64,000 nucleotides of DNA from Pseudanabaenaceae cyanobacterium SKYG29 (GTDB lineage: Bacteria > Cyanobacteriota > Cyanobacteriia > Pseudanabaenales > Pseudanabaenaceae). Of this stretch, positions 19,349 to 26,124 are shown piece by piece; the first letter of the stretch is position 1; every line of letters starts with the position of its first letter. The notes beneath the pieces were generated by a model. It did no database searches, was not told where the DNA came from, and saw only the letters and a program-made list of their open reading frames with translations. The DNA lies in the NCBI GenBank assembly GCA_025055675.1, contig JANWWT010000001.1, positions 434,001-498,000 on the forward strand. The letters run 5' to 3'. The position numbers and the translations under genes are program-made.

Positions 19349-20152
19349 CTACAGAATTTTCTCCAACCCGTAGACCAAGGACTGCAGCGTGATGACTTTG
19401 CGGATTGCCAAGATAACGCCGGGCATATAGCAAGCTCGATCGATGACATTATGGCGCAGGCTATAGGTCTCCCCCGCACTACCAAAGATAACCTCCTGGT
19501 GGGCAACTAAACCAGGCAACCGCACACTGTGAATGGGGATGTTTTCCCCCACTACCTTGCCCCTGCCCTCGGTTTCTAAGCGGGGGTTAAACGTCTTGCC
19601 CAACTCGGAGAGCATCTGTGCCGTTTTAATTGCCGTGCCACTGGGGGCATCCGCCTTCTGTTCATGGTGCAACTCAATGATTTCCACATAGTCATAAAAC
19701 TGACTGGCGGCAACAGCAGCTTGCTGGAGCAAAATCATGCCAATGGAAAAATTGGGAGCGATAATTGCCCCTACACTGGCTTTATCAGCAAACTCAGCTA
19801 AATCTTGGATTTGCGCCTCTGTCAGTCCCGTTGTACCCACTACCGGACGGACTCCATAGGCAATTGCCGATCGGACATGGTCGTAGACTACCCCAGGATG
19901 GGTGAAATCCACCATAACGGCGTACTGCTGCTCCTGCGCTCCCTGCGCCAATAACACTTGCAAATCACTTGTAACTGGCACTTCTAGCGCCCCTATTCCC
20001 ACCACCTCCCCAATATCCTCCCCCAAATGCGTACGTCCTGTTGCCCCAATTAACACTAAATCCCGCCGCTGGGCAATTGCCTTAATTACTGTCCGCCCCA
20101 TCTTGCCCGTTGCCCCCGCCACAATCACAGGAATTGGTAAATCTGTCGCCAT
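19349..20152 (-). CDS. dapB: 4-hydroxy-tetrahydrodipicolinate reductase
   Basis: 267 aa. NAD(P)H-dependent step of diaminopimelate/lysine synthesis. The nucleotide-binding motif [12 protein letters not shown] is at the N-terminus. The catalytic region is [15 protein letters not shown] (His and Lys of the DapB active site), and DFTHPGVV plus VVGTTGLTE are family signatures. A possible Pho box lies ~46 bp upstream of the start, in the region shared with the divergent kinase gene. Confidence 0.96.
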
Positions 20153-20197
20153 GAGATGCCTGCCTAGCTTCAGAGGATTAGTCTACCATCTGCACAA

Positions 20198-20227
20198 AAT
20201 TTAAGGATTAGTTAAGGAAAAGTTAAG
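20198..20227 (-). promoter_or_regulatory. Candidate Pho box (SphR/PhoB-type tandem repeat)
   Basis: Read on the minus strand the stretch is CTTAACTT - 3 nt - CTTAACTA - 3 nt - CTTAAATT: three 8-bp units with exact 11-bp periodicity. The described cyanobacterial Pho box is three PyTTAAPyPy(T/A) units 3 bp apart; two units fit fully and the third has one mismatch. It lies between dapB (46 bp upstream of its start, same orientation) and the divergent histidine kinase gene (71 bp upstream). A minus-strand TAGACT could be a -10 about 12 bp after the last unit. Which gene it serves is not settled. Confidence 0.5.
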
Positions 20228-20298
20228 AATACTTAGTTGCCAACCCCTGCCTAAACCGCCAAGATGGTAGATAGCAAGATTATAGGTAGAAAAACGCC

Positions 20299-22194
20299 AT
20301 GGCACCTTCTGTAGTTATTGCTCAGATTTCCGAGGATCAAGAAAAGCTCTGGCAAGCCGTATTGGAGTCCCAAGGGCTAGAGGTGACGGTCAAATCTCCC
20401 CAGGAAGACCTGACGCAATATCTCAAGGAACAGAAGCTGAGCGGGCGAGAACTACCGCATCTAATTTTGATGGACATGGGGATTACCACCAGTGACGGTT
20501 CCTCCCTGCAAGCAGTAGGGGTTTGCCGCTGGTGTACGGAAAACCAAGCTCCCACTAAAGTCATTCTCAACAACTCCAAACAGGACCAAATTTTACCCCT
20601 CAAGCGACGGTGGGCTACCCGTTTGGGTGCAGCAGACCTCCTACCCCGCCTATTCTCGGAGAATCTCAATGAAATTATCGATCGGGTAGCGGAAATTGGC
20701 GAGTTTACTGTTTCCCGAGCTGCATTGGAACAGATATTTGCCAGCACGACGCGGGCAGAAGCGGAAGACACTACTGTGCTTGCTCCCAGAACTGAAGTTC
20801 GCACTCTCAGGGAAGTAAAAACCGATGAAATTGTCCGTAAATTAGCTGCTCTCACCTCCACGATCAATGAAGTTTATGCTGAAGAAGAGAGTAAGGGAGA
20901 AGAACAAACAACAGGTTTATCTTTGGATGCCACTATTCAAGAACTGACCTTGTATGACTTTCAATTAGAAATCAACCGTCCTGGCAATGATGCTGTTCGC
21001 TACCTAGAAGAAAATACCCTTATTCCTGGTGTGATTCTTGTCCAGGAAGGCAAATACTTTGGCTTTCTTTCTCGCCGTCGCATCCTAGAAATGTTAGCCC
21101 GTCCCTTTGGACAAGAACTATTCTTGAAACGACCGATCGTGAAGATGTATGACTCAGGGGCTTTAGACACTATGATTTTGCCAGGCAACACTTCCGTAGT
21201 TGTAGCGGCAGTCAATGCTTTGCGTAGGGCGGAAGCTCTAATTTATGAGCCAGTAGTTGTACAACTTGATCCAGACAACTATAGAATGCTCGACCTCCAT
21301 GACCTATTGTTGGCACAACTAGAAATACAAGAGACGGCATCCAAGATGCTGCGTAACCAAGCCAAAGCTCGCATGGTGCAGATGGAAAAGATGGCAAGTC
21401 TAGGTCAAATGCTAGCTGAAGTTTCCCATGACATTCGCAACCCTGTCAATTTCATCCATGGTAATGTGGAGTACTTGCAAAATTACTGTCAGAGCTTGAT
21501 TAAAACTGTAGAGACAATTCAGCGAGAGATCAATCATCCTACCCTGGGACAACTGATAGAAACGGAAAATTTAACCTATGTGCTCCAGGACTTACCTAAG
21601 GTAGTCAACAGCATCAAGTTGGGGGCAGAACAACTACGCAATCTAGTCACCGGTCTGCAGAGCTACTCCCACATGGAGGAAGTTATACCCGACATTTTGG
21701 ACATCCATGAATGTATTGAAAATAGTCTCACTATCTTGAGTAATCGCATCAAAGATCAGATTACCATAGAGAAACGATTCAACGAAGAAGTAGGGGAAAT
21801 TCTCGGCTTCCAAGGTCAACTAATGCAGGTATTCATGAACATTATCGGTAATGCTGTGGATGCCCTCTACGAAAAGATGCAGAAGGTAGGCAAGAACGGC
21901 TGGCAACCCAAGATCATTATTTCCACTGGGCTAAAACATGAAGATAAAAATGACTTTCTTTCCATCAAAATTGCGGACAACGGCGAAGGTATTCCCCCAG
22001 AAAACCAAAAACGTATTTTTGATTCTTTCTTCACAACCAAATCAGCTGGCAAGGGCACAGGCTTGGGCATGGCTATTACCCACGAAATTGTTGTGCAAAA
22101 ACATAAGGGTAAGATACTACTTAACTCTCCCTATGTTATGGACGGTAAGAAAATTACAGGTACTGAGTTTGAAGTTTTACTACCTACTTCATAG
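20299..22194 (+). CDS. Sensor histidine kinase with receiver-like N-terminus and CBS-like middle region
   Basis: 631 aa, soluble. Residues ~1-130 look like a degenerate receiver: the acceptor region reads LILMDMGIT, but the conserved Lys near the end is absent (LGAADLLPRLF). Residues ~215-340 contain a CBS-like segment (YFGFLSRRRILEML, LELxLKRPI-type pattern). A coiled coil then leads to an H-box of form VSHDIRNPVNFI (Asp-Ile-Arg instead of the common Glu-Ile/Phe-Asn/Arg). The HATPase domain is complete (NIIGNAVDALYE, DNGEGIPP, GTGLGMAI). The ATG at 20299 lies 71 bp downstream of the Pho-box-like repeat. No response regulator is adjacent, so its partner is unknown. Confidence 0.88.
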   Translation: MAPSVVIAQISEDQEKLWQAVLESQGLEVTVKSPQEDLTQYLKEQKLSGRELPHLILMDMGITTSDGSSLQAVGVCRWCTENQAPTKVILNNSKQDQILPLKRRWATRLGAADLLPRLFSENLNEIIDRVAEIGEFTVSRAALEQIFASTTRAEAEDTTVLAPRTEVRTLREVKTDEIVRKLAALTSTINEVYAEEESKGEEQTTGLSLDATIQELTLYDFQLEINRPGNDAVRYLEENTLIPGVILVQEGKYFGFLSRRRILEMLARPFGQELFLKRPIVKMYDSGALDTMILPGNTSVVVAAVNALRRAEALIYEPVVVQLDPDNYRMLDLHDLLLAQLEIQETASKMLRNQAKARMVQMEKMASLGQMLAEVSHDIRNPVNFIHGNVEYLQNYCQSLIKTVETIQREINHPTLGQLIETENLTYVLQDLPKVVNSIKLGAEQLRNLVTGLQSYSHMEEVIPDILDIHECIENSLTILSNRIKDQITIEKRFNEEVGEILGFQGQLMQVFMNIIGNAVDALYEKMQKVGKNGWQPKIIISTGLKHEDKNDFLSIKIADNGEGIPPENQKRIFDSFFTTKSAGKGTGLGMAITHEIVVQKHKGKILLNSPYVMDGKKITGTEFEVLLPTS

Positions 22195-22234
22195 TCCTAT
22201 ACAAATCGTTAAATCTAGCTCTTCATCGGCATGG

Positions 22235-22262
22235 TATAATTTTCCTACATATCTGCATGTAG
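22235..22262 (+). promoter_or_regulatory. Candidate promoter and operator of the CARF-HEPN gene
   Basis: TATAAT at 22235-22240 is followed within 4 bp by a perfect inverted repeat CTACAT (22245-22250) - 6 nt - ATGTAG (22257-22262), where transcription would begin. That is a usual place for a repressor site. No good -35 box is visible. The 5' leader would be ~140 nt. Near its end CTCC (22363-22366) can pair with the ribosome site GGAG (22376-22379), only a 4-bp stem. Confidence 0.4.
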
Positions 22263-22389
22263 GGTATGGCAGTTTGCTTTGGTGTGTAATCTAGAGTAGA
22301 GACAAAAATCACCAACAAGGGAAGGGAGGATTAAAAAATTGACAAGGGAAAAACTTAAAAGTCTCCACTACTTGCGGAGCTAATGACTT

Positions 22390-23712
22390 ATGACCAAGGT
22401 GTTATTCGTTACTGTCGGTGGCTCACCTCAGCCCATCGTCACTGCTATTAAGAGCCTAAACCCCGATCGGGTCATTTTCATCTGCTCCAGTAACAATAAA
22501 GGTAAAGGTTCTATCGATCAGGTAGTGGGGAAGGGTACGCCCTGTGAAATTAGGAAAGGGGATACAGTTGTGGACAGGTTGCCCAACATTCCCACCCAGG
22601 CAGAAATTACGGCTCGCTTTAATCCCGATCGGGACATAATTCTTATAGATGACCCTGATGATTTATCAGAATGCTATACCAAAATTGCTGATGGCATAAA
22701 AAAAGTAAAAGAAGAAGAGGAAATGGCAAATATTTACGCCGACTATACAGGCAGTACGAAAACAATGTCTGCAGCTCTTGTGGTTGCTAGTTTGGATTAC
22801 GATATACAATTGATGATTACTACTAGCACTGTTAGAACAAATAATATTAGGGTGGAAGTAGGAGAGAGAACAAGGAGAGCGCGCACGATCGGTATGTCGG
22901 TTAGACGATTGTTAGAACAGAATGTAACTACATATCTCAAAGAGTATAACTACAGTGCTGCGGTTAGGTATCTGGAAGAATTACAAGTTAATCATGAACT
23001 AGTAGAGCAAGATGGACAAAAAGTAGGCATGTGTCTGGATATTTGTCGTGCCTTTGATGCTTGGGATAAGTTTGAACATAGCACTGCTTGGCAATTAATC
23101 CAACCCTATATGAAGTCACTTAAAGAATACGGCATTTTTCTGAAGAAAGTAAAGTATAGTCGGAATTTGTTAGACCCAGATTTCAGGGGTGATGACCTGA
23201 TTAAAGGTCATGGCTACGAGGTGCTTCAGGACTTACTATTAAATGTTGAACGTCGTGTAGAGCAAAAACGTTATGATGATGCCGTTGGTCGGCTTTACCG
23301 ATCGTTAGAGTTGTTAGCCCAACTAAGACTCCTGTTACAGTACGGACTGAAGACAGAAAACGTGGACGTAACACAGCTGCCAAAGGATTTACAGTCCAAG
23401 TATGAAAGTTACCGATTGCAAGACGGTAAGGTGCAGCTGGCTCTGCAGCGTTCCTATGAGTTGCTCTGTGACCTCAATGACCCCTTAGGTCGGGTATACG
23501 AAAACTATAAGGGACGGATTATGGATGCCCTGGCAACCCGAAATTACTCAATCCTTGCCCATGGATTTAGTCCAATCATTGAGGAGAAGTACAGAAAGTT
23601 TGCTGATTGTATCCTAGGATTTATGCGGGAGGGCTTATCCATCTGTGTTGGCAATAAATTGCAAGAAGCCCCACAATTTATTAGTGACTTGAGCTTATTA
23701 ACAGAGCTATGA
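22390..23712 (+). CDS. CARF-HEPN protein (TIGR02710-like, Csm6/Csx1-type ribonuclease)
   Basis: 440 aa. The N-terminal ~170 residues form a CARF-type Rossmann domain: first strand KVLFVTVGGSPQPIV (ligand-loop residues 10-16) and the signature DYTGSTKTMSA at residues 118-128. The C-terminal part is all-helical and carries R384-NYSILA-H391, an R-x6-H HEPN ribonuclease motif. In type III CRISPR systems such proteins bind cyclic oligoadenylate through CARF and cut RNA with HEPN. No cas gene or repeat array is visible in the 64 kb, so it stands alone here. Slightly AT-richer than its neighbours. Its stop overlaps the next gene's start by 4 bp. Family assignment is from motif recognition, not a search. 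Confidence 0.82.
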   Translation: MTKVLFVTVGGSPQPIVTAIKSLNPDRVIFICSSNNKGKGSIDQVVGKGTPCEIRKGDTVVDRLPNIPTQAEITARFNPDRDIILIDDPDDLSECYTKIADGIKKVKEEEEMANIYADYTGSTKTMSAALVVASLDYDIQLMITTSTVRTNNIRVEVGERTRRARTIGMSVRRLLEQNVTTYLKEYNYSAAVRYLEELQVNHELVEQDGQKVGMCLDICRAFDAWDKFEHSTAWQLIQPYMKSLKEYGIFLKKVKYSRNLLDPDFRGDDLIKGHGYEVLQDLLLNVERRVEQKRYDDAVGRLYRSLELLAQLRLLLQYGLKTENVDVTQLPKDLQSKYESYRLQDGKVQLALQRSYELLCDLNDPLGRVYENYKGRIMDALATRNYSILAHGFSPIIEEKYRKFADCILGFMREGLSICVGNKLQEAPQFISDLSLLTEL

Positions 23713-23993
23713 CCGATCGTTATTCTAACCTGATCGATTTAGTTAAGGAATGGCAAAGCAATAATTATCAAGACTTTACTCAAGTAGAGTCTTTTTTCAG
23801 ACAGGAAATATTGCCTGACCAAGGTGCCGATCGTTTACGTCTGCATGTAGAAATACACCGTCTGATTAAGTTAATTGAGGCGGATTTATCCCTGCTACAG
23901 GCTAGTCGATCGGAGGAGAATAGACAAAAATATCTGACTAGGCTACAGGAAAAGGCAAATAACCTAATTGCTCTTTGTCAGAGTTATCGCTAG
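23709..23993 (+). CDS. Small helical protein, PatD-like (heterocyst-frequency / FtsZ-interacting family)
   Basis: 94 aa, all-helical. The C-terminal half has the pattern of the cyanobacterial PatD family: EIHRLIKLIEADLSLLQASR, then a linker and a final helix NNLIALCQSYR. PatD of Anabaena affects heterocyst frequency and acts through FtsZ. Members in other cyanobacteria presumably have a more general cell-division role. It overlaps the CARF-HEPN gene by 4 bp (ATGA), so both are made from one message, and overlaps glk by 30 bp at the 3' ends. The family call is from remembered sequence pattern and needs a profile search. Nothing else in the sequence gives a function. Confidence 0.5.
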   Translation: MTDRYSNLIDLVKEWQSNNYQDFTQVESFFRQEILPDQGADRLRLHVEIHRLIKLIEADLSLLQASRSEENRQKYLTRLQEKANNLIALCQSYR

Positions 23994-24974
23994 TATGCCT
24001 GCACCAATTAACCCCACCTCTGGATGTAGGACAATGTGGAAAGGAATATGATCGAGTAGGTGGCTCACCCTGCCTTTGTCCTTGATAGTTGCTAAAAACT
24101 TACCTTGGTCAACTAGACATAAGTTTAATAGCTTGGGTAAAATTCCCCCAGCGATGTAAATCCCGCCATAGGCAAGTAACTTCAAAGCAAAATCCCCCAC
24201 TTCTCGGGCATAGCAGTCTAAAAATATAGCGATCGTTTCTGCTGCGATGCTATCAGTTTTATTCCTAGCAGCTTGAGCAATTAAAGCGGGTGCATCAGGA
24301 TGACTGTCAATGACGGCTTGATAAATATTGCTGTGTTCTGCCCGGTAATATTGATGGAGAAATGCATAGATATTGGTTATACCTTGACCTGATACCACTC
24401 GTTCTACAGAAACACGCCCAAATTTTTGCTGCAAATATTTCAATAGCTCTATTTCGAGCAACGATCGGGGAGCAAATTCGGTATGACCACCTTCTGTCGG
24501 ATAAACCTGGTATCCCTCTCCTTGCTTAATCAAAAAACCTTCCCCTAAACCAGTTCCAGCACCAATAACACCGATCGGTGCCCCTACTACAGGGGTAACA
24601 TTCTGGAGTGTCAGTAAGTCTTGTTTATCTAACCCTAAAACACCATAGCCCACGGCTGTAAAATCATTAATAAACACTACTCGCTCAATTTCCAGATGGC
24701 GACTCACGGCTCGTCGATCGATCACCCAACCTAAATTGACCATGCGGCACTCATCCCCAACAATACTACCTGCAATTCCTAAACAAATCATCTGGGGTTT
24801 TTCTGTAATCTGTAAATTAACCTTGACATCAGTCAAAAATTGCTCGATCACTGCTTCTAGGTGGGGAAAATTCCTCATTTCATAGCGATTTGTGTAGAGA
24901 GGTTGACCATTCTGATCGATTAAACGCAGCAGCCCTTTTGTGCCACCAATGTCTCCCACGAGCAAATAACTCAT
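23964..24974 (-). CDS. glk: Glucokinase
   Basis: 336 aa from the ATG at 24974, chosen because it gives the family start MSYLLVGDIGGTKG and an ATGA overlap with the ruvA stop; the frame is open 19 codons further upstream inside ruvA. ATP-binding motif GDIGGTKG is at the N-terminus, with catalytic Asp region FINDFTAVGYG, GAGTGLGEGF and EGGHTEFAP characteristic of bacterial glucokinase. It phosphorylates glucose at C6 for entry into glycolysis and the oxidative pentose phosphate pathway. Convergent with the PatD-like gene (30-bp overlap). Confidence 0.93.
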   Translation of the reverse strand: MSYLLVGDIGGTKGLLRLIDQNGQPLYTNRYEMRNFPHLEAVIEQFLTDVKVNLQITEKPQMICLGIAGSIVGDECRMVNLGWVIDRRAVSRHLEIERVVFINDFTAVGYGVLGLDKQDLLTLQNVTPVVGAPIGVIGAGTGLGEGFLIKQGEGYQVYPTEGGHTEFAPRSLLEIELLKYLQQKFGRVSVERVVSGQGITNIYAFLHQYYRAEHSNIYQAVIDSHPDAPALIAQAARNKTDSIAAETIAIFLDCYAREVGDFALKLLAYGGIYIAGGILPKLLNLCLVDQGKFLATIKDKGRVSHLLDHIPFHIVLHPEVGLIGAGILAITLTKSN

Positions 24975-25594
24975 AGCTTTTTCTCCTGTAATGTTAACCA
25001 CTCGATCGCTGCTCTGAGCCAATCTTCCCACTGCTCTGTCTGCCTTAAATGGGGCATAGTTGCTACCGCTTGCATAGCTCTTGTGACCTCGTCATGGGTG
25101 TAGCCTAGGGCTAGCAAAGTCATTTCTATTTCCTCTTGCCAAGGTGTGGGGAGAGGTACTACAACTCCCGATCGATAATCTGCCAGTTTAGTGCGCAATT
25201 CTAAGGCTAATCTCTCTGCCGTTTTTGTGCCTATTCCTGGCGCTAAGCATAAAACCCGGATGTTAGAGGTAATAATTGCTTTCACCAAATCAGTCAAACC
25301 TAAAGTGTGCAACAGGGCTAGTGCCATTTGTGTACCGACTCCCGTTACCTGAATTAGTTTGCGAAATAAATCCCTCTCTGCCTTAGTGGGAAAGCCAAAC
25401 AAGCATAATTCTTCCTCTCGCACTTGCAGATGGGTAAATACTTCTACTACTTCATTAATTACTAAAGAACTAGCGTGGCGACCAGTAATACGCACATCGT
25501 AGCCTAAGCCTCCTACCTCCAAACACAAAATATTGCTTACAGGTTTGCGATCGATTTCTATACTCACTACCCGACCACGGATGAGAGCAATCAT
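24971..25594 (-). CDS. ruvA: Holliday junction branch migration protein RuvA
   Basis: 207 aa. OB-fold N-terminal domain (MIALIRGRVVSIE), two helix-hairpin-helix motifs (ITGVG-like LIQVTGVGTQMALALL and CLAPGIGTKTAERLALEL), and a small C-terminal domain III that contacts RuvB. It binds four-way junctions as tetramers and loads the RuvB helicase. Overlaps glk downstream and the coiled-coil gene upstream by 4 bp each, so it lies in a three-gene leftward operon. Confidence 0.96.
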   Translation of the reverse strand: MIALIRGRVVSIEIDRKPVSNILCLEVGGLGYDVRITGRHASSLVINEVVEVFTHLQVREEELCLFGFPTKAERDLFRKLIQVTGVGTQMALALLHTLGLTDLVKAIITSNIRVLCLAPGIGTKTAERLALELRTKLADYRSGVVVPLPTPWQEEIEMTLLALGYTHDEVTRAMQAVATMPHLRQTEQWEDWLRAAIEWLTLQEKKL

Positions 25595-26124
25595 GACTGG
25601 GGCTTGGGTAATTTGGGAAAGCGGGGTAGTTCCACAGCGGCGAAAGAGGACAGGTGCTTTTCGCGGTCGCGGCGGATGAGGGGGGAAGGGGAACGGCGAT
25701 CGGTGGGGGGGCGAGGGGTAGGTTGGGGCTTCTCCTCTTCTCGAAAGGAAATAGCTTCTACGTCCGTCCAGGAAGTCTCAGGGATGGGGTCAGGGTCAGC
25801 CTTGGGTGGGGGGGTAGCAATAGTAGTAGGCACATCAATACACCGTTCCAGAGCAGCTTTAAGTTGGGAGCATTGATGCTGTTCCCGTTTCAAGCGATTA
25901 CGCAATTCCTCGCAGGTGCTTTGGGAGATTGCTAGTTCTTCCTTTTTTGCCAGTAGTTCCTCCTCTAGTAACCGTACCCGCTCCCGCAGAAACTGGTTGC
26001 GACTTTCCTGCTGCTCCAGTAGGGATTGACATTGGTGTAACTTAGCTTGACACTCCATGAGCAATCTCTGATTTTCGGCGCACTGGGGTGCTTGGGGACA
26101 GGTTACTTCCGGAGTAGTACTCAT
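25591..26124 (-). CDS. Hypothetical coiled-coil protein upstream of ruvA
   Basis: 177 aa from ATG 26124 (a TTG two codons earlier is possible). Residues ~15-95 are heptad-rich Glu/Gln/Leu/Arg coiled coil with several Cys. The C-terminal half is a Pro/Arg-rich disordered tail (PTPRPPTDRRSPSP) ending LPRFPKLPKP. No domain recognised. It is first in the operon with ruvA and glk; a 4-bp overlap with ruvA supports expression. Confidence 0.6.
   Translation of the reverse strand: MSTTPEVTCPQAPQCAENQRLLMECQAKLHQCQSLLEQQESRNQFLRERVRLLEEELLAKKEELAISQSTCEELRNRLKREQHQCSQLKAALERCIDVPTTIATPPPKADPDPIPETSWTDVEAISFREEEKPQPTPRPPTDRRSPSPLIRRDREKHLSSFAAVELPRFPKLPKPQS

What the first reader, a model, noticed from the sequence alone, without database searches (positions are those of the whole stretch)
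22195..23993. CARF-HEPN gene coupled to a PatD-like gene, away from any visible CRISPR locus
The 440-aa protein has a CARF signature (DYTGSTKTM) and an R-x6-H HEPN motif (R384, H391), as in cyclic-oligoadenylate-activated ribonucleases. It overlaps by 4 bp a 94-aa gene that resembles PatD, which acts on FtsZ in Anabaena. No cas gene or repeat array is in the window. A nucleotide-sensing RNase translated together with a possible cell-division modulator could be a stress or abortive system in which growth or division responds to the signal. The coupling itself is seen; its meaning is inference.
Basis: partly seen in the sequence, partly recalled or inferred. Interest (0 to 1): 0.65.

Follow-up and report, generated by a model that had tools for sequence, protein, structure and literature searches.

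The report
Stranded CRISPR RNase beside cell-division gene
The gene encodes a known kind of CRISPR alarm-activated RNA-cutting enzyme that was stranded when the rest of its CRISPR operon disappeared; it sits next to a cell-division gene because that operon once ended there, so nothing found here shows that the two proteins work together.

Summary
The two genes and their 4-bp overlap are real. The 440-aa protein belongs to TIGR02710 (CARF1-type CARF-HEPN, Csx1/Csm6-like; 215 bits against a cut-off of 84). Its catalytic R384/H391 and CARF K124 are intact, and a characterised family member is the cA4-activated, self-limiting RNase TTHB144. The 94-aa protein is this genome's single PatD-family gene (39 bits, E 7e-10, below the curated cut-off of 50).

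The "CRISPR-free" setting is only local. A sister genome (G388, same genus) has the same flanks, infB-dapB-histidine kinase on one side and patD-glk-ruvA on the other, with a complete 9-kb type III-D operon between the kinase and the CARF-HEPN gene. The CARF-HEPN gene ends that operon, and patD follows with the same 4-bp overlap. In the window the operon core is gone and an unrelated 195-bp stretch remains. The same genome keeps a separate type III-B locus with an array 229 kb away, which could supply the cyclic oligoadenylate.

PatD adjacency occurs in this genus only: one inherited event, not a recurrent association. Verdict: a new member of a known kind, an orphaned type III effector. The defence-to-division link is unsupported but not excluded.

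The parts
20299..22194 (+). histidine kinase (HisKA + HATPase_c), left flank shared with G388; in G388 the type III-D operon starts 47 bp after it
22195..22389 (.). 195-bp gap at the place of the missing 9-kb type III-D core; no similarity to the operon ends in G388 and no other copy in the genome
22244..22263 (.). perfect 7-bp inverted repeat CCTACAT-6-ATGTAGG inside the gap, role unknown
   Evidence: read from sequence
22390..23712 (+). CARF-HEPN ribonuclease, TIGR02710 family / CARF1 CARF_HEPN (Csx1/Csm6-like), 440 aa
22741..22767 (+). CARF ligand-loop motif DYTGSTKTM (residues 118-126); K124 aligns with TTHB144 K94
   Evidence: PMC6599890
23539..23562 (+). HEPN catalytic motif R384-x6-H391; H391 aligns with TTHB144 H368
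   Evidence: PMC6599890
23709..23712 (+). ATGA stop/start overlap, identical in G388
23709..23993 (+). PatD-family protein, 94 aa, the only PatD match in the genome; predicted four-helix protein
23964..25031 (-). glucokinase, right flank, convergent with patD; same arrangement in G388

Best explanation
The gene is a CARF1-type CARF-HEPN ribonuclease (TIGR02710), the last gene of a type III-D CRISPR operon that lay between a histidine kinase gene and patD in the ancestor of this genome and G388. In the window's lineage the Cas10-to-p205 core was lost and the effector stayed (inferred from comparison). It most likely still works as in TTHB144: a dimer binds cyclic oligoadenylate (probably cA4) in its CARF pocket, the HEPN sites are switched on and cut RNA indiscriminately, slowing the infected cell, and the CARF domain slowly destroys its activator (inferred from homology). 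The signal would now come in trans from the type III-B Cas10 of the same genome (inferred). PatD is the ordinary single-copy gene that happens to lie downstream and is probably read from the same transcript (inferred from the overlap); no functional partnership is needed.
For: Family and fold: (best PDB match is Thermus Csm6 8jbb/8jh1, bound to A2>p or cA4, E about 6e-12). TTHB144 is a TIGR02710 protein, 27% identical, with K94=K124 and H368=H391 (activity from PMC6599890). Origin: G388 has the same flanks with a complete III-D operon (Csx10 357 bits, Cas10 with GGDD) ending in this gene, then patD with the same overlap. In Pseudanabaena cinerea (L132) the same p205 to CARF-HEPN order closes a III-D operon. 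Csx10 is absent from the window genome and present in G388. The window and G388 proteins are sisters (SH-aLRT 99) with similar end branches 0.21 and 0.25, and pairwise dN/dS is 0.11, as for glucokinase (0.10), so no decay is visible. In-trans source: type III-B locus with intact GGDD Cas10, Cmr3-6, two CARF7 proteins, cas1 and a 19-repeat array. All 12 genomes with an above-cut-off TIGR02710 match also have a Cas10 match, against 161 of 386 overall.
Against: No activity, ligand or expression data exist. Polarity (loss in the window versus gain in G388) rests on two genomes and on operon order elsewhere. The window protein has S122 in the usually GG ligand loop (G388 has C121), which could change ligand or ring-nuclease behaviour. 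Whether this III-B complex makes a ligand that this CARF accepts is unknown.
Confidence: 0.75

Rival explanations
1. The pair is a functional module: the cyclic-oligoadenylate-activated RNase and PatD act together, PatD restraining FtsZ assembly when the RNase is expressed or active, so that division stops during infection.
For: The 4-bp overlap is kept in both genomes although the proteins are only 69% and 80% identical. PatD interferes with FtsZ polymerisation and limits Z-ring formation in Anabaena (PMC12288457).
Against: PatD adjacency occurs in this genus only, one event. PatD is single-copy, present in 122 of 386 genomes and also in genomes without a Cas10 match. In the third genome of the genus (G387) patD stands alone, equally short (94 aa), with no CARF-HEPN gene. 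Expression from a shared operon gives no dependence on the alarm molecule.
Confidence: 0.08
2. The gene persists mainly as the leader of patD: its transcript and stop/start coupling are needed to express patD, so it could not be deleted with the rest of the operon.
For: No clear Shine-Dalgarno sequence precedes patD; the ATGA overlap allows re-initiation. The missing segment ends just before this gene.
Against: The protein is under purifying selection and keeps all catalytic residues, more than a leader needs. In G387 patD has its own upstream region and also lacks a visible Shine-Dalgarno sequence.
Confidence: 0.15
3. The orphan senses a nucleotide not made by CRISPR, as considered for some CARF genes outside cas loci, and serves a housekeeping stress response.
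For: CARF genes not linked to CRISPR-Cas occur in each CARF family (PMC4012209). No cas genes lie near it in this genome.
Against: The genome has a type III-B system with an intact cyclase motif. 66 of 80 named homologous loci carry type III or cas1 homologues nearby. The gene most likely descends from a III-D operon.
Confidence: 0.07
4. The III-D core inserted between the kinase and an older CARF-HEPN-patD pair in G388, so the window shows the ancestral state.
For: Only two genomes define the event; G387 has neither arrangement at this place.
Against: In G388 the CARF-HEPN gene lies 6 bp after p205 as the last operon gene, the same order as in Pseudanabaena cinerea. TIGR02710 is a type III ancillary family.
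Confidence: 0.12

Closest known systems
TTHB144 of Thermus thermophilus HB8 (TIGR02710; cA4-activated self-limiting HEPN RNase, PMC6599890)
   Same: Family model, CARF-HEPN layout, aligned K94/K124 and H368/H391
   Different: 27% identity; TTHB144 sits in a type III locus with cas1, cas2 and cas10, this gene has no local cas genes; loop reads GSTK instead of GGTK; ligand untested
TIGR02710 effectors at the end of cyanobacterial type III-D operons (G388, Pseudanabaena cinerea and others)
   Same: Same protein family, same position after p205 in two genomes
   Different: The rest of the operon is missing in the window's genome
PatD of Anabaena (FtsZ-interacting, heterocyst frequency)
   Same: Family match E 7e-10, single copy
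   Different: Below the curated cut-off, 94 aa instead of 119, different neighbourhood
[quoted passage not shown]
   Same: A Cas10 in one place, an effector in another
   Different: Here the effector's own operon appears lost; signalling not tested
SyCsx1 of Synechocystis PCC 6803 (cA4-dependent CARF-HEPN RNase of a III-D system, PMC9676260)
   Same: Same architecture and system type
   Different: Its reported CARF motif is DxTHG, here DYTGS; probably another CARF family (not tested)

Membership tests
TIGR02710 CARF-HEPN (Csx1/Csm6-like) | score above the curated family cut-off | tested here: met
   215.2 bits against 83.9; PADLOC CARF1 CARF_HEPN 441 bits
TIGR02710 CARF-HEPN (Csx1/Csm6-like) | HEPN R-x4-6-H and CARF lysine intact | tested here: met
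   R384, H391, K124 invariant in 27 homologues
TIGR02710 CARF-HEPN (Csx1/Csm6-like) | Rossmann-like CARF plus helical HEPN fold | tested here: met
   AlphaFold2 pLDDT 88, pTM 0.70; best PDB matches are Csm6
TIGR02710 CARF-HEPN (Csx1/Csm6-like) | RNase activated by cyclic oligoadenylate | not testable with these tools
   needs purified protein
Type III ancillary effector | linked to type III genes | tested here: inconclusive
   not linked in the window; linked in G388 and most homologues; Cas10 elsewhere in the genome
PatD (NF037954) | score above the curated cut-off of 50 bits | tested here: not met
   39.3 bits, E 7e-10; only PatD match in the genome; treated as a divergent relative, not filed as an equivalog
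PatD (NF037954) | interaction with FtsZ | not testable with these tools
   needs binding or polymerisation assay
Conserved functional gene pair | recurrent adjacency in unrelated lineages | tested here: not met
   only G000 and G388, same genus

The most novel reading that the evidence does not exclude
After losing its Cas10 complex, a cyclic-oligoadenylate RNase was kept under selection in translational coupling with an FtsZ inhibitor, so that a type III-B alarm elsewhere in the genome both cuts RNA and, through PatD, holds cell division.
Probability: 0.07. Interest if true: 0.65.

Novelty: new member of a known kind. Interest (0 to 1): 0.33.

Why it matters
It gives a before-and-after pair of genomes for how a type III effector is orphaned: the same flanks with and without the 9-kb III-D core, with the effector intact after the loss. 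That is a natural case for testing whether effectors are shared between type III loci in trans, an idea supported so far by a statistical association (PMC11229360). It also shows that an apparently meaningful two-gene overlap can be the leftover of an operon's position.

Tried and rejected
(1) Recurrent CARF-HEPN/PatD pairing: rejected by surveys of 386 phylum genomes, 38 family genomes and 80 named loci. (2) A Cas10 in G387: the weak hit (25.9 bits, below cut-off) lies in a protein that begins like a response regulator, so it is not counted. (3) Transposon or repeat scar in the 195-bp gap: no second copy in the genome. (4) Viral copies of the RNase: none confirmed. (5) Fold search for PatD: nothing significant, best E 0.27. 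(6) Rfam in 20000-26000: nothing. (7) Promoter scan: no more sites than in shuffles. (8) Papers naming PatD together with CARF: none among those listed; TIGR02710 by name: none.

Full report
Observation. The first is a full-length TIGR02710 protein (215 bits) with a Csm6 HEPN domain and a PADLOC label CARF1 CARF_HEPN (441 bits). A profile of 27 homologues finds Thermus Csm6 among solved structures (5fsh, E 6e-9), and the predicted structure (pLDDT 88) matches Thermus Csm6 best. The second matches PatD at E 7e-10 but below its curated cut-off; it is the only PatD match in the genome.

Is there CRISPR nearby? Not in the window: no array by script, and no other Cas family among those listed for 61 ORFs (the lists show 25 of 34 and 25 of 94 families). 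But the same contig carries, about 229 kb upstream, a type III-B locus: a 500-aa Cas10 with YAGGDDFLG, Cmr3, Cmr4, Cmr5, Cmr6, two CARF7 proteins (RelE- and DUF2103-type), cas1, Csx18, and 19 copies of a repeat, 18 of them near-identical.

The sister genomes. The genus holds three genomes here (G000 = the window, G387, G388). In G388 (contig CALGKB010000004.1 by length and match, MAG of an uncultured Pseudanabaenaceae) the region is collinear: infB, dapB, histidine kinase, then a type III-D operon (Cas10 with GGDD, Csx10, Csx7 and other RAMP genes), then the CARF-HEPN gene 6 bp after p205 (the last, unnamed 205-aa operon gene), then patD with the same overlap, glk and ruvA. Window and G388 align up to the end of the kinase and again from the start of the CARF-HEPN gene; 9.07 kb in G388 correspond to 195 unrelated bases in the window. 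Csx10 is found in G388 and not in G000 or G387. In G387 patD stands elsewhere without a CARF-HEPN gene, and the kinase is followed by an lspA-like gene, named from its sequence only.

Loss or gain? In Pseudanabaena cinerea the same p205 to CARF-HEPN order ends a III-D operon (L132), and TIGR02710 genes lie beside III-D genes in many other cyanobacteria. Loss in the window's lineage is the simpler reading, but only two genomes carry the comparison, so it is an inference.

Is the orphan still working? The protein keeps all catalytic residues. Pairwise dN/dS with G388 is 0.11, like glucokinase (0.10) and above the kinase (0.04); dS is near saturation, so this is rough. On a tree the two are sisters with similar end branches, 0.21 for the window and 0.25 for G388, so no faster evolution after the loss is seen. 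The Thermus homologue TTHB144 aligns K94 with K124 and H368 with H391; it is a cA4-activated RNase that also degrades cA4 (PMC6599890). All 12 genomes with an above-cut-off TIGR02710 match also have a Cas10 match at E 0.001 or better, against 161 of 386 overall; some of those Cas10 matches are weak. TIGR02710 genes also sit beside III-B loci of the kind found here (L150, L169, L173, L197), so service by III-B is plausible. Sharing of signals between type III loci has been proposed (PMC11229360).

PatD. PatD is a single-copy gene in 122 of 386 genomes, with or without a Cas10 match. In 13 of 19 sampled genomes it lies divergently next to a RelA/SpoT gene. Among 80 named TIGR02710 loci a PatD profile finds only G388. 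The 94-aa length is shared by G387, so it is not caused by the overlap. One shared ancestor explains the pair; a functional bond is neither shown nor excluded.

Verdict. A well-preserved type III CARF-HEPN effector, orphaned by loss of its III-D core, adjacent to patD through the former position of the operon. New member of a known kind.

Noticed in passing
L072, L073, L075, L077-L079, L081-L087: In 13 of 19 sampled cyanobacteria patD lies divergently next to a RelA/SpoT (p)ppGpp synthase/hydrolase gene, a recurrent neighbourhood that could link PatD to the stringent response.
   Followed up: partly
L014-L017 (G334, G174, G101, G191): Short 168-198-aa proteins match only the N-terminal (CARF) half of TIGR02710 and lie about 6-8 kb from a Cas10 match; possible stand-alone CARF proteins.
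   Followed up: no
L068 4031-15818: The window genome's type III-B locus: 500-aa Cas10 without an HD match, two CARF7 proteins (RelE- and DUF2103-type), PD-DExK protein, Csx18, cas1 and a 19-copy array.
   Followed up: partly
window 22244-22263: Perfect 7-bp inverted repeat CCTACAT-6-ATGTAGG in the gap left by the missing operon.
   Followed up: no
window 22750-22755; L141 1355-2677: The usual GG of the CARF loop (residues 121-122) is GS in the window protein and CG in G388; the other nine proteins of alignment A1 keep GG.
   Followed up: no
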